A model generated the notes under the pieces. The model had not been told where the DNA came from and ran no database searches. It saw nothing but the letters and a program-made list of their open reading frames with translations. A program made the position numbers and the translations under genes. DNA of 64,000 bases from assembly GCA_034231615.1 (NCBI GenBank), contig CM067317.1, positions 17,870,264 through 17,934,263 on the forward strand, given 5' to 3'. This document shows, piece by piece, positions 10,969 to 62,958 of the stretch (the stretch's first letter is position 1; each line of letters opens with the position of its first letter). The stretch is from Meghimatium bilineatum. Lineage: Eukaryota; Mollusca; Gastropoda; Stylommatophora; Philomycidae.

Positions 10969-11129
10969 CGAACACACGCCTAAATCGAGGAAAATATAAA
11001 TAATTTTTAAATATTACTTGTGTTAATATTATTAACATGTATATCAGTTAGGACCACAGTTTGCCAGTGTATTGCCATAGCATAGAAGGGGAGCAAAGAC
11101 TAGCATCACTGTTACCTACCGTGTGTATT

Positions 11130-12383
11130 ATAAGATACGAGGGGTGCAAAGGGAACGCATTGCTCTAGGCGGACCCAGGGTTAGCAGATAACCAGGATCC
11201 CAAATGTACCTCCACGCGGTGCACCCTGGAAACAGAAATACAGCAGCTCGAGCTGATTCTGGCCAAATCATTTGGGGATCGTGTCCGAGAATGTGGAGGT
11301 AGCAGATGGAAAGAGATTTGACTGCACAAGAGACAGACAATATCTCCGACACCACCAGCATCACCACATATAGCGACACTGTCGACATACAGTGAAGCAA
11401 GTCAGTCCAGTCCGAACATTGGAGGGGCGGCCAATGTAAAATGCACGTAAATATAGATGCATGGCGAGAGACAAATATATTTCATACCGAGTACAATGAA
11501 ACAATGAAAGGGCAGAACAGCACTAGAGGGCAGCGCGTACTGCAAATAGAAAGTGAAAAGTCCCAAAGAAAGGGGAACTACAAGTTCCGTCAGCTCGAGA
11601 CGAGCTTCTAGTTACCTGTGTTCCTTACAGGCAGAGACCCAGACCCATCCATCGGCGTTTGGTAAAGCAAGAAGACCTAACCCAACTCTAATGTCGAGCC
11701 TTCCTAAACCGGAAATATGCTCGCGAAGAGAAAGGGTTCCGTACTCGATGCGCTCAGGCACAAAAGGGACCACGATTTAGCCCTGGCCCAACTCTACTGT
11801 CAGGTTTTCCTACACCGGAAATACACTTGAAGAGAGAAAGGGTTCAGTACTTGATGGGCTCAGGCGCTATTGGGACAAGGACGCTCAGCTCGAGAACGCC
11901 TTGCTCTCAAACGCGTGGTGTGAGACTCGAACTTGGACAAGGGGTACACGATGTCGGTGAATGACACCTCGGCTAAGAGGGCGAAAGAGCCAGGGTCCAA
12001 CTCCTCTGTTGAGTTCTTCCCCTTAAGGAACCAGGCTCACGGATGAGAAACGGTTCAGTACCCAATGGGCACAGGCACAGCACGTCCAATTACACGAGGC
12101 AAGTTCATAGACAGTGGAACACCTCGTTAGAGTCAGACGATAGCAAAAAATCGTCTGGGCGAAGAGTCTCCGCTACGCGTGCCTGGAGACAGATATAGAG
12201 GCTGTCACAGGCTAAGGGTAGCCCACCCGAATTGTCAAGTCATGCCGAAATCGGATGTGCTAGGCCTACAAGGCGCATAACGATGGCACAACGTAATCAC
12301 GCTCCCGGCGGAAATCGCACGGATATCCGTGATGGTTACAATGGAGCGAACGAAAAACAAACAAACAAAACAATAAGATACGA
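11130..12383 (+). mobile_element. 1.23-kb retroposon, full-length copy 1, with 11-bp target duplication
   Basis: The 11-mer ATAAGATACGA occurs at 11130-11140 and 12373-12383. The element between (11141-12372, 1,232 bp) starts GGGGTGCAAAGGG and ends in an (AAAC)n tail, the signature of target-primed reverse transcription. It is collinear over its length with 61721-62945. One frame near its 5' end reads ADNQDPKCTS and later EIQQLELILAKSFGDRVREC in both copies, so it may derive from the start of a retrotransposon ORF. No reverse transcriptase is present. It may be an internally deleted LINE or a very long SINE-like element. Confidence 0.85.
11675..12095 (+). repeat. three diverged internal repeats of about 90 bp within the retroposon
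   Basis: Blocks beginning near 11678, 11785 and 11996 share CCAACTCT at the start, CCGGAAATA or a derivative, GAGAAAGGGTT and GGGCTCAGGC. The same three blocks occur in the second copy, so the triplication predates the spread of the family. Confidence 0.65.
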
Positions 12384-12740
12384 CTAAGGAGGTTTTAGGG
12401 TGGTGGATTTAGTTGTTCGATCCAATAGATGGTAAGTAACATTGACATACAAATATGCTGACGTCGGATGTGATAGACCAAAATTCTCAGATATCGCACG
12501 TAAGCTGTAAACCTTGATACAACGCATTCCGTAATACGAGGAAATCCTGTTCATCTATAAGAGCTTGAGAACGAAGGAACAAGAAGACAGTATGTGTTCT
12601 TACAATTTGAAGATAACCAAGTCCAACACTGACCATCTTGTATTTAAAATATGTTGGTTTAATAACAATAACCTTCTATTGTGATTCATTTGACTTCTCT
12701 AGTGATTATACTGGCCACTGTTTTTTTACGTTGTGTAGAC
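12384..12740. other. unrecognised sequence
   Basis: No feature is seen between the retroposon and the LINE fragment. Confidence 0.4.
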
Positions 12741-13364: not shown

Positions 13365-13700
13365 ACATTATAGCTGGTGTCTCGACAGTATACGCTGTAT
13401 GGTGCAATTTATAACTGGTGTCACGACAGTATACTTTGTTTGTTTGTTAAATGGGGGATTAAAGCCTCTTAGCAGAGGCACGACCCTTTCAACCTAAGAC
13501 AGAAGTCTATTTTGGTTATATCAGGCCTTATTAGCTTTTATCTAAATGTGACCTAATGGTCTGCTGTATGGTGCAATTTATAACTGGTGTCGCGACAGTA
13601 TACGCTGTATGGTACAATTTATAACTGTTGTCTCGACATTATACACTGTATGATGCAATTTATAACTGGTGTCACGACATTATACACTGGTGCAATTTAT
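13365..13700 (+). repeat. 40-bp minisatellite, interrupted
   Basis: Units contain GCAATTTATAACTGGTGTC, a CACGACAGTATAC segment and GCTGTATGGT. About seven units are seen, split by an insertion at about 13434-13562 and followed by a retroposon insertion at 13710. Confidence 0.85.
13434..13562 (-). mobile_element. probable short retroposon insertion with (AAAC)n tail
   Basis: A 130-bp block unrelated to the 40-bp units begins with TTTGTTTGTTTG, which is an (AAAC)n tail on the minus strand. It contains AAGCCTCTTAGCAGAGGC, a short inverted repeat. No clear target duplication was found because the flanks are themselves repetitive. Confidence 0.45.
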
Positions 13701-13865
13701 AACTGGTGTAATTGTCAAGGCATGCCGAAATCGGATGTGCTATGCCTACAAGGCGCATAACGGTGGCACAACGTAATCACGCTCCCGGCGGAAATCGCAC
13801 GGATATCCGTGATGGTTACAATGGAGCGAACGCAAAACAAACAAACAAACAAACATAACTGGTGT
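13699..13865 (+). mobile_element. 5'-truncated copy of the 1.23-kb retroposon with 11-bp target duplication
   Basis: ATAACTGGTGT occurs at 13699-13709 and 13855-13865 around a 145-bp insert. The insert matches only the 3' end of the full-length copies, from AATTGTCAAGGC through GGATATCCGTGATGG to an (AAAC)n tail. A 5'-truncated insert with a target duplication is the standard product of LINE machinery. It lies inside the 40-bp array. Confidence 0.85.
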
Positions 13866-17494: not shown

Positions 17495-18498
17495 ACGTGT
17501 TTACACTGATTTGATTAATACATAGTGATGAACAAATGACCATATTATATAGAATATTTAGAGGAAGAAACAGTAACAGTTGTTTACTAATAATTGTTAA
17601 CAGAAGTACAAAGCAATACATTTTATGCATACAGTTTACAAAACACAGACCTAATCTTATACACAAAAATCGCATGGTTATCGGCTTTTATCGGAATGGA
17701 AGCACATATTAGCAGCACTGTCACCTATCGATCATTTTGTGATTCAATGGGTGATTGAATCAGTTTGTGCGTGCTATAGTTTGTTTCACTTGACTCATTG
17801 AGGGTCAAAGAGACACTGAAGACAATCTCAAAATATATATAACGAAATGCAGGGCGTAGATATCGCATCCAATCTGCAAACAATAACAACTCGTGCTTTG
17901 CCTGCGGTCTAAATGAAGATACAGTGCAGCCGTTTCAAAAACATAATGAGAAAGACTAAAACATCAAGTTAACAGTCTGTTAAACAGGCAAGTAAGTTAT
18001 TGAATGTCTGCAGTCTATACTATTTGTAATATTAATTTGTGAAGAAAATATTTGATTGTTTGGCCTTATTTGCTGTTGGTGAGAAACTATTTTCATCGAC
18101 ATCTCAATGTGATCAAGTTATTTGTAAAATAGTAACTATATTTTGGTCTTGCAAGTCCATGTTTTATGAACTGTAAATCTTATTACTTTGAAGTTTCATC
18201 AAGCACGCTCAAGAAGATTTTAGTTCAGATGCGCGAGCACTGTAGCACTGCAAGCACATTTGGTAGGTTTGAAGTATGCGACAAAAATGACAATAGTTTG
18301 CAATTAGAGTAATGGTGGATGCCCAGTCGTAGAACTAGCAGTCGTACTGTGATGACGACTATATTCACGAGGAGATGAGGAAATAAATGAATAGCCACGT
18401 GTACACTGACAATGATGTGACAATTATGTAGCCATGTAATCGTATTCTAATACATAATCCCGAATGTGTCCATGTAATACAGATCATCATTTCCAACA
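17495..18498. other. AT-rich sequence without recognisable feature
   Basis: Nothing supportable on either strand. Confidence 0.4.
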
Positions 18499-19020: not shown

Positions 19021-19299
19021 CCCCATTTATGCATTGATGGAATTTTCGATTAATTTCGTAAGCATACCAATATTTAGTACTGCTTTAAACATAATCCATC
19101 GTGTAAACTTAAGTTTTTACCATATTATTTACATCAATGTCTAACTGACTAGACACTTTTAGACGGTCAATTTAGCAAATTTTGAATTAGACACTTTTCT
19201 TGCCTTCATGTAGTTTTTCCGAACTTTTTCAGCAAAAAATGTAGGAAGGAAGAGGCGGCGATTTTTTAAAATAGGTTTTGTATATATATAAAGCATATA

Positions 19300-19645
19300 C
19301 GTCAATGGGCATTAAGAAAGAGCACAGGTAAATTTTTCCAAATTCACTCGGGAGTGAGACAGGGATGTGTACTATCCCCTATATTGTTCATAACAGACAT
19401 AGGTCGCATCTGCAAAGTAACAAAGACAACAAGAGAAAATAACATAAAGTATAAATTAAACGAACTGCTATTTGCAGACGACCAAACACTAGTAGCATGA
19501 CCAGAAGAGCAACTACAAAGACAAATAAACAGATTACATAAACACGCCACACCTTTGACATAAAGATAAATATAGAAAAGCCTGAAGTGCTGAGGATGGC
19601 GAAGAACAGAAAGAAACAGCAATATATTTAACTACAAGTCTATAC
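19300..19645 (+). pseudogene. non-LTR retrotransposon reverse-transcriptase fragment
   Basis: The plus strand reads ALRKSTGKFFQIHSGVRQGC, then VLSPILF, and after about 30 residues LNELLFADDQTLVA, followed by a stop, PEEQLQRQINRLHKHA and INIEKPEVLRMAKNRK with shifts. GVRQGCVLSP and FADD are the palm motifs of LINE reverse transcriptase, and the catalytic FADD is intact. Only about 110 residues remain, so it cannot be active. Its continuation resembles the 57,240-57,790 fragment (FADDQ, then P-E-E-Q). Confidence 0.88.
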
Positions 19646-28724: not shown

Positions 28725-29645
28725 GATTTGTTTTATTGTGGTCGTTTGTGGGTCCTGATGAAGGCTTATTAGTCAAACGGTCGTCGGTCCCTGTATCTGG
28801 TTGTTAGGTTGTTGCATGTTTATTTTGGTAACACATCTACCTATTTTTGTATATCTTGACATTTGTCATGTGTTACTCCCGCCACCTACTTCCTGTTTAG
28901 GGATGTTACCCTACACTGGAACATTTATCCCTTGGTTTAAAGTTAAAACAGTTCATGCCAGTGTGGTTGTCGTCTACACATCATGTCAAGCAATACTGCG
29001 TTGCATCGTTAAAAGTTAAAACAGTCATGTCAATATTGTATCACTCAAAATTACGTCCAATAAAATTAGTGTCTGCAAAACGTATATCATGTACACTCCA
29101 CTTTGAAAAAATGTTGCCAATGATAGGTCTAACCTGACTTAATCAAACACGTGTGCCTTCTCATTCGCCTAATTACTAAATCAATTCTTTCTTTCCTTCT
29201 GCTCCTGCAATTTATTTCCAAGACATATTGTGCGTAATACAATGCGATCGATGACCTCTGCTCATTATAACTAGCTTATCAAAAACCGCTGCTTAATTCA
29301 TATTACATATATAGGTCATTATTTCATTGTCAAATTATGTCTATAGAAAATAATCTTTTCAGAGCAGTAATAAGTTAAACGAGATTGAATCGATATGTAT
29401 TGTTGTCTTACTTTCTTTAGTAAAGGCGTAATGTGTTTTTAACTATTAACAAAACGTTCGTTTCATTTCTTCCTTGATTAAGCCGTTATTAGGTCGGTGA
29501 TGAAATGCGGTTCTTTCGACAAAGGTTTAGCTGTGGCAACTTAGACCAGCTGTTCTGCTGACATATGATGTGTAGGAGATGGTATATTTTCATATTTATT
29601 CTCATAATTCTGCACTTTTAGATATACATTTCTTTAGTAATATGT
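28725..29645. other. AT-rich sequence without recognisable feature
   Basis: Nothing supportable on either strand before the LINE fragment. Confidence 0.35.
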
Positions 29646-29649
29646 TAAT

Positions 29650-30335
29650 TTCTACCGTTAAGTTTGATGCATTGTACATTATGGGGATTATATTTAGTTT
29701 ATATCAAAACCAGCAAGCAGCCATGGAAGCACACAGTGAAACATCTGATTGGTTCAGCGTGGAAAAAGAAGACAGACAAGATTATGTTCTATCGCCATTT
29801 TTCTTCAACATATTTGCATATAAAATAATGGAGAATGTAAATAAGTCACTAACGGAGAAATAACTTCGACACACTCAACATCAGAGATTACGAGATACCA
29901 AAAGTACGATCTACTGACAATGCAACATTATTGGAACACAGTCAATCAGGTCTCGAACACCTCATATACTATATGAAAGAACATAATAAACACAAAATCT
30001 ATTTCTGAATGGAAACAAGACCAAAATTATAACAAATGACAAAACCACTAGCAAGTTCTCAATCAGTATCACCAACAGCGAATTAGAAAGAGTCACTTGA
30101 AAGAATACCTTGGTTCTCTTATCAAAAGTAGCAGTGATTGCTATTAAAAATTCAGAAGAAGGAGGGTGGCAATCGCGTCAAAGAAGCTGATAAAAATAAA
30201 AACATATGGATGAGCAGCTACAAAACAACACAATTATCACTTCTAAGAACTTGTATATTCCCGGTGGTAATACATGTATGTAAATTCTCAAGATCAACAG
30301 AAGTTTCAATATTCTGCTATGACTGCTAGATCCTG
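29650..30335 (+). pseudogene. non-LTR retrotransposon reverse-transcriptase fragment
   Basis: The frame ending at 29863 reads IIFSLYQNQQAAMEAHSETS, then DWFSVEKEDRQDYVLSPFFF and NIFAYKIM. It aligns with the reverse-transcriptase block whose usual form has SLYxNQQA and RQGCVLSPFLFN. After a frameshift come DYEIPKVRSTDNATLLEHSQ and GLEHLIYYMKEH. The catalytic YADD is replaced by STDN. Further shifts lead through a YLGSLI-like block to LSLLRTCIFPVV. It covers the palm and thumb of one LINE protein and is dead. Confidence 0.85.
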
Positions 30336-39189: not shown

Positions 39190-40290
39190 GCTGAAGTTAT
39201 CGCATAGGGCAAAGGTCAGATCTCTCCAATTCTATCTGTTCAAAGGTATTCTGTGCTGTTCTTGAATAGTGTGAATATTGGTTGTTTTACTTTCTCTAAG
39301 TATTGTTCTTCTAAGTGTTTCTGTTGGTCTACCCCTTGCTGTTTTGCCTTTAGGTACCCATTCAAGAGATTGGTGGTGTATTCTGTTGGTGTCTGCGCGT
39401 AGGACATGCCCGGTGTAGGACCAACGGCGTTTTCTGATAACATCTGTGATGAAATTTTGATGTGTCTCTTCTCTGATTTTATCATTCGATTTGAATTCAC
39501 TCCAATGGGTGTTAGTTATCCTACGAAGACATTTGTTCTCGAAACTCAGTAATTTCTTTTCTGAAGATAAAGAGCTTTTCCAGCTCTCACATCCATATGA
39601 TAGCACCGGAATAACGCAGGAATTAAATAGCGCATTTTCGTGCGTGTGCTGATTGACTTTGACTTCCAGATATTAGACAGTCTGTTAAATGCACTTGATG
39701 CTAGGGCAATGCGAGTTGTAATTTCTGGCATGACATCACCGTCGAGTGTTAATTTGCTTCCTAGATAGGAGAATTTGTGTACTTTTTCAATTTGTTGTTC
39801 ATTTAAAGTAATTTAGTTAGGTGAATTGGTGAGTCCATAATTTTTGTTTTTGCTGAATTGATTTGGAGACCTATTTGTCCTGCAATGAGTTATAATCTAT
39901 CAATTTTTGTTTGTGTATCTTGATGGTTTTCACTCAAAAGTGCAAGATTATAGGCAAACTACAGGTCTTCTAATGTTGTTTTATTTATCCATTTGATTCT
40001 TAAATTTGTGTTAGATGTGCTTTTTCTCATAGCCCAGTCAATTGCGATATTTAATAGTAATGGTGACATAGGGCAGCCTTTTTAACACCAGTAATCACTG
40101 GGGGTCATTCTGAATTGCCTCTTTCTGTTCTAACCCAGCATTTTGAGTTGGTATAAAATGATTTTATCACATTTATATATTTGTTTTGGAATCCGTATAT
40201 TTTTAAAATTTCCCAAAGCGATGGTCGATGGATGCTGTCGAAGGCTTTTTGAAAATCAACGAACTTTATTATGAGATTATATCTAGAAAT
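39190..40290 (-). pseudogene. non-LTR retrotransposon: palm to C-terminus
   Basis: Read right to left on the minus strand: RQHPSTIALGNFKN, then KGCPMSPLLLNIAIDW (the RQGCPLSP-type motif), TLEDL-stop-FAYNLALLSE (catalytic site), INSAKTKNYGL, VHKFSYLGSKLTLDGD, then GCESWKSSLSSEKKLLSFEN, KCLRRITNTHWSEFK, RKRRWSYTGHVLR and ARGRPTETLRR. Expected DFADD has become stop-FAYN, so the catalytic pair is lost. This is the longest LINE relic in the window, about 1.1 kb, truncated 5' of the palm. A 440-bp tail copy lies at 57834-58272. Confidence 0.88.
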
Positions 40291-41752: not shown

Positions 41753-41814
41753 GCACAGACCATCATTATGATTAATTAATTAATTTAAGACACGTCTTGT
41801 TGAATATCATTACG

Positions 41815-42095
41815 CCCGTGTGTTCTGAGTCCCGAAAGGGGAACAAATAATATCAACACTATTTACCTTCCAAGCATGTCGTAAGAGGCGACTAATGAGG
41901 TTATGGGATGGGGTTGGCTGTCCCATTCTATAGAGGGTCAGTGACCCAGCGCCATGCTGAAGTCGGATGTGTCAGACCGAAGGCGCATATATCGCAGCAA
42001 TGATGTAAACCATGGCACAACGAATTCCATTCTTCGGACTAAATCCTGCTAATCTGCAGAAGTTTGAGAACGAACGCAGAAGAAGAAGAATGTCA
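41815..42095 (+). repeat. SINE with (GAA)n tail, longest copy
   Basis: The core reads TCGTAAGAGGCGACTAATGA, GGTTGGCTGTCCCATT, GCTGAAGTCGGATGTGTCAG, AAGGCGCATATATCGC, CATGGCACAACGAATTCC and GAGAACGAACGCAGAAGAAG. It is about 280 bp. The segment from GCTGAAGTCGG to GGCACAACG resembles the 3' domain of the 1.23-kb retroposon. Frame at 42012-42227 is incidental. Confidence 0.75.
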
Positions 42096-43999: not shown

Positions 44000-44450
44000 G
44001 TCGATCTTACTTAGCTATTTGATAGCCACACTAGAACTTTACAATATTGTTTGTCGATATTGCTTAGTCATTTGATGGTTAGACTAGAACTTTATAAAAT
44101 ATTGCAATGGATTGATTGTTTATCAAACTGTGCATGATGTTTCTTTTCATGTCACATTGGAGTTGGCATATTATATAATATATTCATGTCCACCAATTTA
44201 GAATGTAATAGTAGACTTAACAATTCTGTTTCTTCGCTCTCCCCGTTCGTGGGGGTTTTCTTTGCTACTTTTGTAGGATACACACTATTGGAATATTCTG
44301 GTGCCGATTTTCGTGGTACTTGACGACTCACTCTTTAATTAACCTTGTATAACACTAGCTTGTTGTGAGTTCCGTGTGAGAAGAAAATACAGCAGCACTG
44401 TTTACATTCCATTAATATTGTTTGAGAAGACGAAAACTTTTCTGTGGTGG
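44000..44450. other. AT-rich sequence without recognisable feature
   Basis: A loose direct repeat around ACTTTACAATATTGTTTGTCG occurs at its start; nothing else. Confidence 0.4.
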
Positions 44451-44454
44451 AGTT

Positions 44455-44640
44455 TATTATCCCACTCGTATAGACTCAACGTAACCAAGAGGTCATACTG
44501 AAATTGGATGTGTCAGTACGAAAAGGGTAGATATCGCCGCAAAGATGTAAACCATTACACGGCGAATTTCAGTCTCCAGATTGACTGCTAATTGACAAGG
44601 ATTTACAAATCAATGCAGAAGAATCTCGCGTAGGAGACAA
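44455..44640 (+). repeat. SINE with (GAA)n tail, degenerate copy
   Basis: ACTGAAATTGGATGTGTCAG, ATATCGCCGCAAAGATGTAA and AATGCAGAAGAATC align with 41815-42095. Confidence 0.6.
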
Positions 44641-45605: not shown

Positions 45606-46015
45606 TAAGGTTAACATTAATACCGTTAGTTAACATTAATACCGTTAGTTAACATTTTAATACCGTTAGTTAACATTAATACCGTTAGTTAACATTTTAA
45701 TACCGTTAGTTAACATTTTAATACCGTTAGTTAACATTAATACCGTTAGTTAACATTTTAATAGCGTTAGTTAACATTAATACCGTTAGCTAATATTAAT
45801 ACCGTTAGTTAACATTAATACCGTTAGTTAACATTAATACAGTTAGTTAACATTTATACCGTTAGTTAACATTTTAATACCGTTAGTTAACATTAATACC
45901 GTTAGTTAACATTTTAATACCGTTAGTTAACATTAATACCGTTAGTTAACATTAATACCGTTAGTTAACATTTATACCGTTAGTTAACATTAATACCGTT
46001 AGTTATCATTAATAC
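45606..46015 (+). repeat. 19/21-bp minisatellite, about 21 copies
   Basis: Two unit lengths alternate irregularly: TAATACCGTTAGTTAACAT and the same with two extra T. The palindrome GTTAAC is in nearly every unit. Confidence 0.95.
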
Positions 46016-46275: not shown

Positions 46276-46389
46276 TGCTCCAGAGACACAAAGATGTAGG
46301 AAGGTACATTGAAAAACGTTTTCATTAAATTCAATAACGGCCTTTGTGTTGCTGGAGTAAGAAAGGGAAATAGAGAATAACGACACTTT

Positions 46390-46606
46390 TGTTTGGCATG
46401 CATGGTGTAAGAGCCGACTAGGAAGGTTTTGAGGATGGAATTGGCTGTCTCATCTCATAAAGTCTCAATGTATCAGAGCCTATAATGACGTCAAATTTGT
46501 CATGTCGATAGTCATAGCTATCGCAGGGTAGCTGTAAACAAGGATGATCTGACTACATCCTGATAATATGCAGGAGTTTGAGAACGAACGCAGAAAAAGA
46601 AGAAAC
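46390..46606 (+). repeat. SINE with (GAA)n tail, copy
   Basis: GTAAGAGCCGACTAGGAAGG, ATTGGCTGTCTCATC, CATCCTGATAATATGCAG and AGAACGAACGCAGAAAAAGA align with 41815-42095. Confidence 0.65.
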
Positions 46607-46904: not shown

Positions 46905-47980
46905 ATAGATATATACCAAATGTAAGTTGTTCCATTCCACAACACACCCGTAGGTATGCCGTCGCAAAAGAGGGATAATTAACTGAGAAGAAATATATTG
47001 TTTCATTGTTATTATTTTTTGCTGTCCTTTTTTAGAAAAAAATAATATTAAGGAGATTGCGGCGTTCTGGTTATTCTATCTTTATTTAAAAGTGTGTTTC
47101 CTGGTGATACGTCTCATATTCTGACTCCTTAAGGATGATGTTTATTAACTCCCCCCACCCCCTCCCCCACAGCTTAACGGGCTCGAGTATAACTAAAGTA
47201 ACAGCCACACGGAGTACCTTCATAAAACACACAACCACCCTGGCTTGTTAACATGCATTCACACATAAACACACACAGATATATATTCATACGTACATAT
47301 ACATATATAACCAAACACATACACATATTCATATTCATAAATACATACACACATACACACAGAAGAAATTATCCATATAATAAAGAGAGCTGCAGAAGAT
47401 ACATTTCGAAAGAACTAAAGATGTAATCGCATTAATTGAAACGAGGCGTAGTGATGCTAAATATGAATCAAACATAGATGGGCAATTAACAAATAACATA
47501 AAAGCAGAAATATAGAAAGGTATAATAATAATAGAGATTTAATTTCAAATTATAAATATAGACATAACATTAAAAAAAAAAGAAATGCATAATAAAACGT
47601 ATTCAGAGATATAGATATTTCAGGAAAAACGTAAATCGGTAATTGTATCATAGAATCAAATCAGGTGAATGCTTCCGATAAACACGAGCCAGGCATTCGG
47701 GCAGATAATTTAAATTATGGAAAGGGTCTGAAAGAAAGTTATATAATTAGATATTTTGAGAAAAAATAGAGAAATTAAGTAACAGAATTAGAAGTTACAG
47801 GTTACCGATATATTAAGCTGAATATTAGCAGTGAATAACATGATGTATGCAGGCATGCTAATATCACGTGTATAAATGTGCAGGAATAGAATATAGTATC
47901 TGCTACTAATATTGTATATGTCAGTCCTAAGTACAGGATCAAAGGTAACAGTGGATGTAGTATTTACTGAATTGTTTCAA
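46905..47980. other. AT-rich sequence with a CA/TA-rich tract
   Basis: A pyrimidine block (CTCCCCCCACCCCCTCCCCC) lies at about 47150-47170 and a CA/TA-rich tract at 47215-47360. No gene seen. Confidence 0.5.
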
Positions 47981-47989
47981 CAGTAGATG

Positions 47990-49725
47990 TAGTATATGAT
48001 TGATGGTTGTAAGAATGAATGTAGTGTATGATTAGTGGTTGTAACAAAAAATGTAGTGTATGATTAGTGGTTGCAACAGTTGATGTAGTGTTTGATTAGT
48101 GATTGCAACAGTTGATCAGTGTATGAGTAGTGGTTGCAACAGTTGATGTAGTGTTTGATTAGTGGTTGCAACAGTGGATTTAGTGTATGAGTAGTGGTTG
48201 CAACAGTTTATGTAGTGTACGATTAGTGGTTGCAACCTTGGATGTAGTGTATGATTAGTGGTTGCAACAGTTTATGTAGTGTACGATTAGTGGTTGCAAA
48301 AGTGGATGTAGTGTATGATTAGTGGTTGCAACAGTGGATTTAGTGTATGATTAGTGGTTGCAACAGTTTATGTAGTGTATGATTAGTGGTTGCAACAGTT
48401 GATGTAGTGTATGATTAGTGGTTGCAACAGTTTATGTAGTGTATGATTAGTGGTTGCAAAAGTGGATGAAGTGTATGAGTAGTTTTTGCAACTGTTTATG
48501 TAGTGTATGACTAGTGGTTGCAACAGTTTATGTAGTGTATTATTAGTGGTTGCAACAGTGGATGTAGTGTATGAGTAGTTTTTGCAACTGTTTATGTAGT
48601 GTATGACTAGTGGTTGCAACAGTTTATGTAGTGTATTATTAGTGGTTGCAACAGTGGATGTAGTGTATGAGTAGTTTTTGCAACTGTTTATGTAGTGTAT
48701 GTTTAGTGGTTGCAACAGTTTATGTAGTGTATGATTAGTGGTTGCAACAGTTTATGTAGTGTATGATTACTGGTTGCAACAGTGGATGTAGTGTATGATT
48801 AGTAGTTGCAACAGTGGATTCAGTGTATGATTAGTGGTTGCAACAGTTTATGTAGTGTATGATTAGTGGTTGCAACAGTGGATGTAGTGTATGAGTAGTT
48901 TTTGCAACAGTTTATGTAGTGTATGTTTAGTGGTTGCAACAGTTTATGTAGTGTATGATTACTGGTTGCAACAGTGGATGTAGTGTATGAGTAGTTTTTG
49001 CAACAGTTTATGTAGTGTATGTTTAGTGGTTGCAACAGTTTATGTAGTGTATGTTTAGTGGTTGCAACAGTTTATGTAGTGTATGTTTAGTGGTTGCAAC
49101 AGTTTATGTAGTGTATGATTAGTGGTTGCAACAGTTTATGTAGTGTATGATTACTGGTTGCAACAGTGGATGTAGTGTATGATTAGTAGTTGCAACAGTG
49201 GATGTAGTGTATGATTATTGGTTGGATTAGTGGATGTAGTGCATTATTAGTGGTTGCAACAGTGGATGTAGTGTATGATTAGTGGTTGCAACAGTTTATG
49301 TAGTGTATGATTACTGGTTGCAACAGTGGATGTAGTGTATGATTAGTGGTTGCAACAGTAGATGTAGTGTATGATTAGTGGTTGCATCAGTGGATGTAGT
49401 GTATGATTAGTGGTTGCAACAGAAGATGTAGTGTATGATTAGTGGTTGCATCAGTGGATGTAGTGTATGATTAGTGGTTGCATCAGTGGATGTAGTGTAT
49501 GATTAGTGGTTGCATCAGTGGATGTAGTGTATGATTAGTGGTTGCATCAGTGGATGTAGTGTATGATTAGTGGTTGCATCACTGGATGTAGTGTATGATT
49601 AATGGTTGCAACAGAAGATGTAGTGTATGATTAGTGGTTGCATCAGTGGATGTATTGTATGATTAGTGGTTGCAGCAGTGGATGTATTGTATGATTAGTG
49701 GTTGCATTAGTGGATGTATTATGTG
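47990..49725 (+). repeat. 32-bp satellite array, about 54 copies
   Basis: The unit is GATGTAGTGTATGATTAGTG plus GTTGCAACAGTG with frequent TTTATG and TGAGTAGTTTTTG variants. Three units make 96 bp, so long minus-strand frames (48383-48715, 48820-49035) repeat every 32 residues and are not genes. Later units (49380-49700) carry a GCATCAG variant. Confidence 0.97.
48492..48683 (+). repeat. 96-bp higher-order repeat inside the 32-bp satellite
   Basis: Blocks of three different 32-bp variants start at 48492, 48588 and 48684, exactly 96 bp apart, and the first two complete blocks are identical by eye. Confidence 0.8.
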
Positions 49726-53147: not shown

Positions 53148-53189
53148 AATTACTTCCAGTCTTTACTAGATCATCTCATATCTCCTTGA

Positions 53190-54250
53190 GTGGTCTACAC
53201 TCCACTGGAGCTAGCTGGTCTGCTATTTCATTTCCCCTGAGTTGTGAGTGGTCTACACTCCACTGGAGCTAGCTGGTCTGCTATTTAATTTCCCCTGAGT
53301 TGTGAGTGGTCTACACTCCACTGGAGCTAGCTGGTCTGCTATTTCATTTCCCCTGAGTTGTGAATGATCAAACCTCCACTGGAGCTAGCTGGTCTGCTAT
53401 TTAATTTCCCCTGAGTTGTGAGTGATCAAACCTCCACTGGAGCTAGCTGGTCTGCTATTTAATTTCCCCTGAGTTGTGAGTGGTCTACACTCCACTGGAG
53501 CTAGCTGGTCTGCTATTTCATTTCCCCTGAGTTGTGAATGATCAAACCTCCACTGGAGCTAGCTGGTCTGCTATTTAATTTCCCCTGAGTTGTGAGTGAT
53601 CAAACCTCCACTGGAGCTAGCTGGTCTGCTATTTAATTTCCCCTGAGTTGTGAGTGGTCTACACTCCACTGGAGCTAGCTGGTCTGCTATTTAATTTCCC
53701 CTGAGTTGTGAGTGGTCTACACTCCACTGGAGCTAGCTGGTCTGCTATTTCATTTCCCCTGAGTTGTGAGTGATCAAACCTCCACTGGAGCTAGCTGGTC
53801 TGCTATTTAATTTCCCCTGAGTTGTGAGTGATCAAACCTCCACTGGAGCTAGCTGGTCTGCTATTTAATTTCCCCTGAGTTGTGAGTGGTCTACACTCCA
53901 CTGGAGCTAGCTGGTCTGCTATTTAATTTCCCCTGAGTTGTGAGTGGTCTACACTCCACTGGAGCTAGCTATTCTGCTATTTAATTTCCCCTGAGTTGTG
54001 AGTGGTCTACACTCCACTGGGGCTAGCTTTTCAGATATCTTATTTTCCCTTAGCTGTGAGTGATCAAACCTCCACTGTATCTAGCTGGTCAGCTATTTCA
54101 TTTCAACGGAGTTGTGTGTGATCAAACCTCCACTGTATCTAGCTGGTCAGCTATTTCATTTCATCTGAGTTGTGAGTCGTCAAACCCCCACTGTATCTAG
54201 CTGGTCAGCTATTTCATTTCCCTTGAGTTGTCAGTGGTCTAAACTCCTCT
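53190..54250 (+). repeat. 58-bp satellite array with two unit types, about 18 copies
   Basis: All units share GGAGCTAGCTGGTCTGCTAT and TTCCCCTGAGTTGTGA. Type A has GTGGTCTACACTCC, type B GTGATCAAACCTCC. The order runs roughly A A A B B A B B A A B B A A A then diverged B units after 54050. The left units are nearly identical while the right end is decayed. Confidence 0.95.
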
Positions 54251-54259
54251 GGAGAACTA

Positions 54260-57790: not shown

Positions 57791-57833
57791 TTTTCACATG
57801 CTTCCAGACTACCACCATATTCATTCATTAATT

Positions 57834-58272
57834 AATTTTCTATTTGCGCTGAAGTTAGCGCATAGGAAAGAGGTAAGATCTCTCCAATTCTGTCTGTTCA
57901 AAGCTATTCTGTGCAGTTCTTGAATAGTATGAATATTGGTTGTTTTAATTTCTCTAAGTATTGTTCTTCCGAGTGTTTCTTTTGGTCTACCCCTTGCTCT
58001 TTTGCCTGTAGGTACCCATTCAAGAGATTGGTGGTGTATTATGTTGGTGTATGCGCGTGGAACATGCCCGGTGTAGGACCAACGGCGTTTTCTGATAACA
58101 TCTGTGATGGTATTTTGATGTGTCTCTTCTCTGATTTTATCATTCGATTTGAATTCACTCCAATGGGTGCTAGTTATCCTACGAAGACATTTGTTCTCGA
58201 AACTCAGTAATTTCTTTTCTGAAGATAAAGAGCTTTTCCAGATCTCACATCCATAAGATAGCACCGGAATAA
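57834..58272 (-). pseudogene. non-LTR retrotransposon C-terminus, second copy
   Basis: The minus-strand 147-codon frame begins MLSYGCEIWKSSLSSEKKLL and continues with KCLRRITSTHWSEFKSN, RKRRWSYTGHVPRAYTN and ARGRPKETLGRTILRE, to LNRQNWRDLTSFLCANFSAN. It aligns with 39190-39610 with few differences, so the two are copies of one LINE. This one has a longer uninterrupted frame (C-terminus open to its stop) but no polymerase. Confidence 0.85.
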
Positions 58273-58274
58273 CG

Positions 58275-58855
58275 TGCCATCATATAGTGCCACACAAAAT
58301 GATTTGTTATACAGGCCCAATGAATATAAAGCCAGTTGCAGACCTTGCAAATGATTAAACAAACATATGGAATATGTATATACAAAAAAATAATTTTCAC
58401 ACAAAAGTTACATATACATAGAACTCTTATACCTCTGACTCTGCAAAGCATAAAGCGTTATAAAGCGAAATGAAAAGAAAAATAAAAAATATACTTTTTA
58501 TTCATCTTTCTTGTAGTCTGCATAAAAGATAAAATAATTTAGCCGTTGGGAAAAATAGATAATTTATATTGAATTAAGAACAACACATTTATAAGGTCAT
58601 GATTAATATAAGACGACATGAAAACAACCAATGCATTACATCAAGTAGTTTTTAAGAAAATAAACCCATACGTTTTATGAGATTGTAATGAAAACTTGAC
58701 CATAGTTGAATACAGTCATTATTATTCACCGCAGGCGTTCAGTGTTACTAGTTTCTTATTTAATTAAATATTTTTACTAGAGATAAAAATTGTTAATCAA
58801 AGAAGGAAACTATCAACTGAAATGTTGCCTATTGAACTGCGGTATTGTGATTGAC
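58275..58855. other. AT-rich sequence without recognisable feature
   Basis: Nothing supportable. Confidence 0.4.
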
Positions 58856-61707: not shown

Positions 61708-62958
61708 ATAGAGGTATATGGGGTGCAAAGGGAACGCATTGATCTCGGCGGACCCAGGGTTAGCAGATAACCAAGATCCCAAATGTACCTCCTCGCTGTG
61801 CCCCCTGGAAACAGAAATACAGCAGTTCGAGCTGATTCTCGCCAAATCATTTGGGGATGGTGTCCGAGAATGTGGAGGTAGCAGATGGAAAGAGATTTGA
61901 GTGCACAAAAGACAGACAATATCTCCGAAACCACCAGCAACACCTCATACAGCGACACCGTAGACATACCATGAAACTAGTCGTTCCAGTCTAAACATTG
62001 GAAGGGCGGCCAATGATAAAAGCATGGAAAGGTGGATGCATTGCGAAAAACAGATATATTTCATACTGAATACAATGAAAAAAATGAAAGGACAGAACAG
62101 AGGGAAGCGCCAACTGCAAATACATAGTGGAAACGATTACGGAAATAGGAACTACAAGCTCTGTTAGCTTGTGACGAGCTTCTAGTTACGTGATTTCCAT
62201 ATAGGCAGAGACCCATACCCAATAATGGGCGTCTAGCAAAGCAAAAAGACCTGGCCTAACTCTAATGTCGAGTCTTTCTATACCGGAAACATGCTCGCAA
62301 AGAGAAAGGGTGCCATAACCGATAGGCTTAGGCACGAAAGGGACAAAGATGGCAATCCTGGCCCAACTCTACTGTCAAGCTTTCCTATACCGGAAATACA
62401 CTTGCAGAGAGAAAGGGTTCCGTACCTGATGGGCTCAGGCGCTATTGGGACAAGGTCGCTCAGTTCGAGAACGTCTTGTTCTCAAACGCGTGGTGTGAGA
62501 CTCAAACTTGGGCAAGGGGTTCACGTTGTCGGTGAATAACACCTCAGCTAAGAGGGCGAAAGAGCCAGGGTCCAACTCTTCTGTTTTGTTCTTCCTCTTA
62601 AGGAACCAGGCTCACGGATGAGAAACGTTTCAGTACCCGATGGGCACAGGCAAAGTACGTCCAATTACACGAGGCAAGTTCATAGACAGTGGAACACCTC
62701 GTGCTTACAGACATGAGCAAAAATCGTCTGGGCGAAGTCACCACACACAGTCGGTCCTGGCGACAGATAGGGAGGCTCTCTCAGGCTAGTGTAGCCCACC
62801 CGAATTGTCAAGGCATGCCGAAATCAGATGTGCTAGGCCTACAAGGCGCATAACGGTGGCACAACGTAATCACGCTCCCGGTGGAAATCACACGGATATC
62901 CGTGCCGATTACAATGGAGTGAACGAAAGAAAAAAGAAGAAAAAAATAGAGGTATATG
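61708..62958 (+). mobile_element. 1.23-kb retroposon, full-length copy 2, with 13-bp target duplication
   Basis: ATAGAGGTATATG is at 61708-61720 and 62946-62958. The element (61721-62945, 1,225 bp) starts GGGTGCAAAGGG and ends in a purine-rich GAAAGAAAAAAG tail, unlike the AAAC tail of copy 1. Collinear with 11141-12372. The frame at 61718-61900 reads ADNQDPKCTSSLCPLETEIQ and LILAKSFGDGVRECGGSRWK; copy 1 shows the same frame with a few substitutions. The second tandem frame (62291-62539) is likewise shared. No polymerase domain. Confidence 0.85.

What the first reader, a model, noticed from the sequence alone, without database searches (positions are those of the whole stretch)
11130..12383. 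1.23-kb retroposon family with both ends fixed by target duplications
Two collinear copies, 50 kb apart, each lie between different perfect direct repeats (11 bp ATAAGATACGA and 13 bp ATAGAGGTATATG). Both start (G)GGGTGCAAAGGG and end in an A-rich simple tail. That defines a complete unit far longer than a usual SINE yet with no visible reverse transcriptase. It may be an undescribed non-autonomous retroposon or an internally deleted LINE.
Basis: partly seen in the sequence, partly recalled or inferred. Interest (0 to 1): 0.75.

Follow-up and report, generated by a model that had tools for sequence, protein, structure and literature searches.

The report
Ribozyme-headed non-autonomous retroposon family
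A 1.23-kilobase "copy-and-paste" DNA parasite that makes no protein of its own appears to begin with a self-cutting RNA of the hepatitis-delta-like type lying exactly at its first base, which would explain how it makes a precise 5' end.

Summary
Two 1.23-kb copies (A 11141-12372; B 61720/61721-62945; 86% identical) lie between perfect 11- and 12/13-bp target duplications. Three additions:

(1) A third copy, C (13710-13854), keeps only the last ~123 nt plus tail, with its own 11-bp duplication. That is 5' truncation, as target-primed reverse transcription gives. All three targets read TT|ATA.

(2) Copy A interrupts an older dispersed repeat. Four relatives in the window (60-70% identical) align through the junction, showing A's ends directly.

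(3) Its first 141 nt fit an HDV-like self-cleaving ribozyme whose P1 starts at the element's first base. The strict descriptor hits nowhere else in the window, and in 0 of 30,000 element shuffles. Against: the descriptor was written after I found the fold by eye; Rfam scores are below gathering; B has one mismatch in P1 and one in P3.

No coding trace was found. Best reading: a non-autonomous non-LTR retroposon headed by an HDV-like ribozyme and moved by an unidentified LINE, designed like R2 SIDEs and NARTc. No host genome or repeat library was available, so host, parent LINE and prior description remain open.

The parts
11130..11140 (+). 5' target-site duplication of copy A (ATAAGATACGA)
12373..12383 (+). 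3' target-site duplication of copy A
11141..12372 (+). copy A of the retroposon, 1232 bp, full length
   Evidence: target relatives uninterrupted at the junction
11141..11281 (+). proposed HDV-like ribozyme; predicted cleavage just 5' of 11141
11141..11147 (+). P1 5' strand GGGGTGC, pairs with 11221-11227 GCACCCT (G1.U wobble, 7 bp, duplex -11.8 kcal/mol)
11148..11195 (+). J1/2 insert, predicted to fold as two hairpins in both copies (-13.9 kcal/mol each)
11196..11206 (+). P2 5' strand, 8 bp with 11269-11276, then one bulged G (11277), then 3 bp with 11278-11280
   Evidence: letters; helix
11208..11220 (+). P3 ACC / L3 TCCACGC / P3' GGT: proposed active-site loop
11228..11229 (+). GG, P1.1 partner of the CC in L3
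11233..11261 (+). P4 region, CAGAA/TTCTG plus an inner hairpin
11262..11268 (+). J4/2 GCCAAAT; candidate catalytic C at 11263 or 11264 (the two Rfam models differ)
11673..11778 (+). internal repeat 1 (copy A)
11779..11884 (+). internal repeat 2 (copy A), 106 bp after repeat 1
11988..12083 (+). internal repeat 3 (copy A), about 210 bp after repeat 2, weaker
12218..12372 (+). conserved 3' end and AAAC-type tail of copy A; proposed reverse-transcriptase recognition region
61708..61720 (+). 5' target-site duplication of copy B (12 or 13 bp)
61720..62945 (+). copy B, full length; ribozyme layout kept with one mismatch in P1 and one in P3
62946..62958 (+). 3' target-site duplication of copy B
13699..13709 (+). 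5' target-site duplication of copy C (ATAACTGGTGT), within a 41-bp tandem array
13710..13854 (+). copy C, 5'-truncated: last ~123 nt plus tail; 97.1% to copy A over 140 columns
13855..13865 (+). 3' target-site duplication of copy C

Best explanation
A non-autonomous non-LTR retroposon. Its RNA is proposed to be transcribed either from an upstream host promoter or from an internal one, and to cut itself with a 5'-terminal HDV-like ribozyme just before the element's first G. That would leave a transcript with a fixed 5' end. A LINE-encoded endonuclease/reverse transcriptase, acting in trans, would recognise the conserved 3' end and A-rich tail, nick at TT|ATA targets and copy the RNA by target-primed reverse transcription. 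Complete copying gives units such as A and B; incomplete copying gives 5'-truncated units such as C. Shown here: the boundaries, the duplications, the 5' truncation, the shared target motif, the lack of detectable coding, and a sequence that fits the ribozyme double pseudoknot starting at nucleotide 1. Inferred: actual self-cleavage, the LINE partner, the promoter, and the role of the internal hairpin repeats.
For: Boundaries: perfect duplications at three copies; joined flanks of A align through the junction to four dispersed relatives at 41836-42093, 25336-25066, 46340-46600 and 44382-44568, identity 60-69.5%, no gap at the junction. Truncation: copy C starts about 1.1 kb into the unit, has the same 3' end and its own duplication. 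Target: 3 of 3 duplications begin TT|ATA; TTATA has a frequency of 0.0030 per base in the window. Ribozyme: strict descriptor, one core on two strands, P1 at 11141 = element nucleotide 1; 8 strict hits in 60 shuffles of one strand (3.84 Mb), about 2e-6 per base; element-specific shuffles with nt 1-7 fixed: copy A strict 0 of 30,000, copy B relaxed 22 of 30,000. Rfam drz-agam-1 aligns P2, P3, L3, P1' and J4/2 in A (20.8 bits, E 0.042) and the same without P4 in B (16.8 bits, E 0.43). The P3-L3-P3' string CCUCCACGCGG (A) or CCUCCUCGCUG (B) differs at 2 of 11 letters from the CCUCCUCGUGG reported as most conserved in fruit-fly and zebra-finch R2 (passage of PMC5035012). The J1/2 insert folds the same way in both copies. 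Constraint: A-B divergence is uneven (chi2 62.4, df 20, p 3e-6); ribozyme 9/141 against 157/1081 elsewhere, Fisher p 0.006. Non-coding: substitution phases 54/54/58, at least 12 stops in every frame of both copies; 0 Pfam families in six frames of A.
Against: No Rfam match reaches its gathering score (0 in the window). Rfam's alignments start at 11183, not 11141; the P1 5' strand at 11141 is my assignment. The descriptor was written after the fold had been found by eye. With the relaxed descriptor the window as a whole is not enriched (5 P1 starts on +, 1 on -; 60 cores in 15 one-strand shuffles), so for B only the position is informative; looser descriptors give many hits (25 to 747). The nested minimum-energy fold does not show the ribozyme and pairs the P1 strand elsewhere; it is no more stable than shuffles (z -0.62 in A, -0.24 in B). 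B has one mismatch in P1, one in P3 and others at the ends of P4 and P2; only one A-B difference in a helix keeps a pair (GC to GU), so there is no compensatory covariation between A and B in the ribozyme. The 3' end shows no excess stability in three of three copies (z -0.23 to -0.58). Copy C's duplication lies in a tandem array that repeats the same letters. No LINE with the same ends was available.
Confidence: 0.82

Rival explanations
1. A plain internally deleted LINE (SIDE or HAL1-like): the 5' UTR with ribozyme and the 3' UTR of one autonomous LINE joined by deletion, the middle being LINE remnant. This is a special case of the best explanation and differs in where the middle comes from.
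For: R2 SIDEs have this design, with a middle of unknown origin (PMC3414825, section read). LINE-like RT fragments lie in the window (by eye).
Against: No codon signal or Pfam match in the unit; both copies share one layout with three hairpin repeats. The LINE fragments in the window share no sequence with the unit by blastn.
Confidence: 0.35
2. A long SINE with a pol III promoter head (tRNA, 5S or 7SL).
For: Non-coding, TSDs, A-rich tail, dispersed.
Against: No tRNA found in the window (ARAGORN, which could miss degenerate SINE heads); no Rfam family at gathering; the only match at E up to 5 in 11100-12400 is a ribozyme. Length 1.23 kb.
Confidence: 0.05
3. Retrocopies of a host non-coding RNA (processed pseudogenes) rather than a self-propagating family.
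For: Non-coding; TSDs; A-rich tail; only three copies seen here.
Against: The tail is AAAC-type in two of three copies, not plain poly(A). Uneven A-B divergence suggests evolving source copies under constraint. A ribozyme at nucleotide 1 is not expected of a capped transcript.
Confidence: 0.07
4. The ribozyme fit is coincidental; the 5' end is fixed for another reason, such as an internal promoter.
For: Sub-threshold Rfam scores, post hoc descriptor, mismatches in B, competing nested fold.
Against: 0 of 30,000 shuffles for A; P1 start coincides with the independently defined first base; active-site loop close to R2's; structured J1/2 in both copies.
Confidence: 0.1

Closest known systems
R2 SIDE and R2/R1 hybrid SIDE of Drosophila (PMC3414825)
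   Same: 5' HDV-like ribozyme, non-coding, 3' end recognised by LINE machinery, middle of unknown origin
   Different: R2 SIDE is 529 bp and sits in 28S genes; here 1.23 kb, dispersed at TT|ATA with variable 11-13 bp duplications; parent LINE unknown
NARTc / RIME / SIDER of trypanosomatids (PMC4035085)
   Same: non-autonomous retroposons dispersed with TSDs and a 5' HDV-like ribozyme (Pr77)
   Different: their 77-nt hallmark is shared with known L1Tc/ingi LINEs; here a ~141-nt ribozyme with a structured 48-nt J1/2, and no known partner
drz-Agam HDV-like ribozymes of mosquito (Rfam RF01787; PMC4908430)
   Same: P3-L3 loop, extended P2 and a structured J1/2 domain, as described for drz-Agam-2-1
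   Different: Rfam drz-agam-1 score 20.8 bits against a gathering score of 37; activity untested
Metazoan retrozymes (PMC7229834, PMC7761336)
   Same: ribozyme-bearing non-autonomous non-LTR retroelements of animals
   Different: those use hammerhead ribozymes in ~170-400-nt tandem units with circular RNA; here no hammerhead match, single linear unit

Membership tests
non-LTR retroposon (target-primed reverse transcription) | variable-length target duplications around copies | tested here: met
   3 of 3 copies, 11, 12/13 and 11 bp
non-LTR retroposon (target-primed reverse transcription) | A-rich 3' tail, constant 3' end and 5' truncation | tested here: met
   same 3' end in 3 of 3 copies; C truncated
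non-LTR retroposon (target-primed reverse transcription) | clean insertion relative to an empty site | tested here: met
   copy A: four paralogous, not orthologous, sites aligned through the junction; copy C: an array unit aligned through it; copy B: no empty site found
HDV-like ribozyme | double pseudoknot P1, P2, P3, P1.1, P4 with P1 at the cleavage site | tested here: met
   copy A under the strict descriptor; copy B only with one mismatch in P1 and one in P3
HDV-like ribozyme | Rfam family score above gathering | tested here: not met
   20.8 and 16.8 bits against 37
HDV-like ribozyme | catalytic C in J4/2 and conserved U and G in L3 | tested here: met
   GCCAAAT in both copies; L3 U1 and G6 in both copies
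HDV-like ribozyme | covariation of helices | tested here: inconclusive
   two full-length copies only; one GC-to-GU change, no compensatory pair
HDV-like ribozyme | self-cleavage | not testable with these tools
   needs a bench assay
SIDE (internally deleted LINE) | 5' and 3' ends shared with an autonomous LINE | not testable with these tools
   no host genome held; exact-pattern scans of viral and prokaryote collections 0 hits, as expected for an animal repeat
SINE | pol III promoter head from tRNA, 5S or 7SL | tested here: not met
   degenerate heads could be missed
retrozyme | hammerhead ribozyme in tandem units | tested here: not met
   no hammerhead match; units are not in tandem

The most novel reading that the evidence does not exclude
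An independent lineage of animal retroposons that is wholly RNA-based in its cis functions: a 5' HDV-like ribozyme with a structured J1/2 domain, a central array of three repeated hairpins that may bind the borrowed reverse transcriptase or a host protein, and a conserved 3' recognition end. It would evolve as a structured RNA replicon in its own right rather than being a recent deletion product of one LINE.
Probability: 0.3. Interest if true: 0.65.

Novelty: new member of a known kind. Interest (0 to 1): 0.5.

Why it matters
Non-autonomous retroposons headed by HDV-like ribozymes are documented, in what I read, in Drosophila rDNA and in trypanosomatids. A dispersed 1.2-kb family elsewhere would show that a ribozyme start plus a LINE-recognised 3' end is a general recipe for parasitising LINEs. 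The TSD-defined first base also gives an exact, testable prediction of the cleavage site.

Tried and rejected
SINE reading: no tRNA in the window, no Rfam family at gathering. Coding remnant: no codon phase in the substitutions, stops in every frame, no Pfam family in six frames of copy A. Unusually stable 3' fold: rejected, z -0.23 to -0.58 in three copies; sliding 120-nt windows gave z below -2 in 3 of 24. Ribozyme as nested minimum-energy fold: not seen. A constrained fold of P2 plus P4 failed in both copies (one search returned the infeasible value), probably because the interior loop exceeds the program's limit. The nhmmer step printed nothing and is not used; copy counts rest on blastn. 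Relatives: exact-pattern scans of viral contigs and genome contigs gave 0; these collections hold viruses and prokaryotes, so this says little about animals. Looser descriptors: copy A recovered in 5 of 5 settings, copy B in 1 of 5, with 25, 34, 20, 747 and 140 P1 starts on both strands together. RNAalifold's covariation term for the six internal repeats is +0.56, i.e. not favourable, although two pairs carry double changes.

Literature: 10 searches used. No listing showed an HDV-like-ribozyme retroposon from a mollusc; one search held 766 papers of which 12 were listed, so that search is weak. Repbase and Dfam were not available.

Full report
Observation. The two units, their target duplications and their shared start are present as described.

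Boundaries. Copy A lies in an older dispersed repeat. When the flanks are joined with the duplication kept once, the sequence aligns through the junction to four other members of that repeat in the window, at 41836-42093 (69.5%), 25336-25066 (63.5%), 46340-46600 (60.0%) and 44382-44568 (64.0%), with no gap at the junction. These are paralogous empty sites, so the inserted unit is 11141-12372 with an 11-bp duplication. A second, 5'-truncated event, copy C, has the same 3' end and its own duplication inside a 41-bp tandem array; an array unit also aligns through its junction at 79%. No empty site was found for copy B. All three duplications start TT|ATA, which points to one endonuclease preference.

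Ribozyme. Rfam's only match at E up to 5 in 11100-12400 was the HDV-like ribozyme drz-agam-1 (20.8 bits, gathering 37). Its alignment covers P2, the P3-L3-P3' loop, P1' and J4/2; copy B gives 16.8 bits. Reading the sequence by eye, the missing P1 5' strand is GGGGTGC, the first seven bases of the element, pairing with GCACCCT through a G.U first pair. A descriptor written after that finding gives one strict core on both strands of the window, with P1 at 11141; 60 shuffles of one strand gave 8 strict hits. With nt 1-7 fixed and the next 173 nt shuffled, copy A's strict fit recurs in 0 of 30,000 and copy B's relaxed fit in 22 of 30,000. Looser descriptors are not specific, and under the relaxed one the window as a whole is not enriched over shuffles. 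The loop CCUCCACGCGG (A) or CCUCCUCGCUG (B) matches 9 of 11 letters of the R2 string quoted in PMC5035012 (passages seen). The 48-nt J1/2 folds as two hairpins in both copies, and P2 is extended; PMC4908430 (first of four parts read) reports that a structured J1/2 together with an extended P2 accelerates drz-Agam-2-1. PMC3774820 (sections 12, 16, 18 and 19 read) reports P1 of 6-7 bp, P1 to P1' distances of 23 to over 700 nt, a conserved L3 G, and that a P1 mismatch can abolish activity in vitro. By that measure copy A looks intact and copy B impaired. Against: sub-threshold Rfam scores, post hoc descriptor, no compensatory change between A and B, and a nested fold that competes and is no more stable than shuffles.

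Rest of the unit. There is no coding trace (B's frames were not scanned against Pfam). A-B divergence is uneven: 3-7% per 60-column window over the first 180 columns, 20-29% in parts of the middle and near 12100-12215, and 3-10% over the two windows before the tail. Decay after insertion alone should be even, so much of the difference probably arose in source copies under constraint at the ends; clustered changes and alignment error were not excluded. Three internal repeats (two in tandem at 106/107 bp, a third about 210 bp on) occur in both copies. A shared hairpin pairs in 93.3% of 90 cells (shuffled mean 88.9%, 0 of 500 as high; slid versions 31-51%), with two pairs changed on both sides (184 of 500 shuffles reach that). 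The structure came from the same alignment and RNAalifold's covariation term is not favourable, so this is suggestive only.

Comparison. R2 SIDEs (PMC3414825: abstract and section 5) and NARTc/RIME/SIDER (PMC4035085: passages) are non-autonomous elements with 5' HDV-like ribozymes. It works like these on present evidence. Membership as a SIDE needs the parent LINE and could not be tested. It is not a retrozyme (PMC7229834 abstract; PMC7761336 passages), since no hammerhead was found.

Verdict. A real, complete, non-autonomous retroposon, very probably headed by an HDV-like ribozyme: a new member of a known kind unless a repeat library already lists it.

Noticed in passing
41813-42093, 25341-25064 (-), 46340-46600, 44385-44573, 17682-17888, and the flanks of copy A (11055-11140 / 12373-12612): An older dispersed repeat of about 300 bp with five further members at E below 1e-3 in the window; copy A is inserted in one of them. 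Family not identified.
   Followed up: partly
19270-19497 (+), 29576-29860 (+), 39235-39812 (-), 57824-58279 (-): Frames that look by eye like reverse-transcriptase or C-terminal fragments of LINEs (motif recognition recalled). The two tested ORFs (39232-39672, 57821-58279) had no Pfam match above cut-off.
   Followed up: partly
whole window, e.g. 47947-49718, 53187-54254, 45610-46015: Dense minisatellites: 59 Tandem Repeats Finder rows.
   Followed up: no
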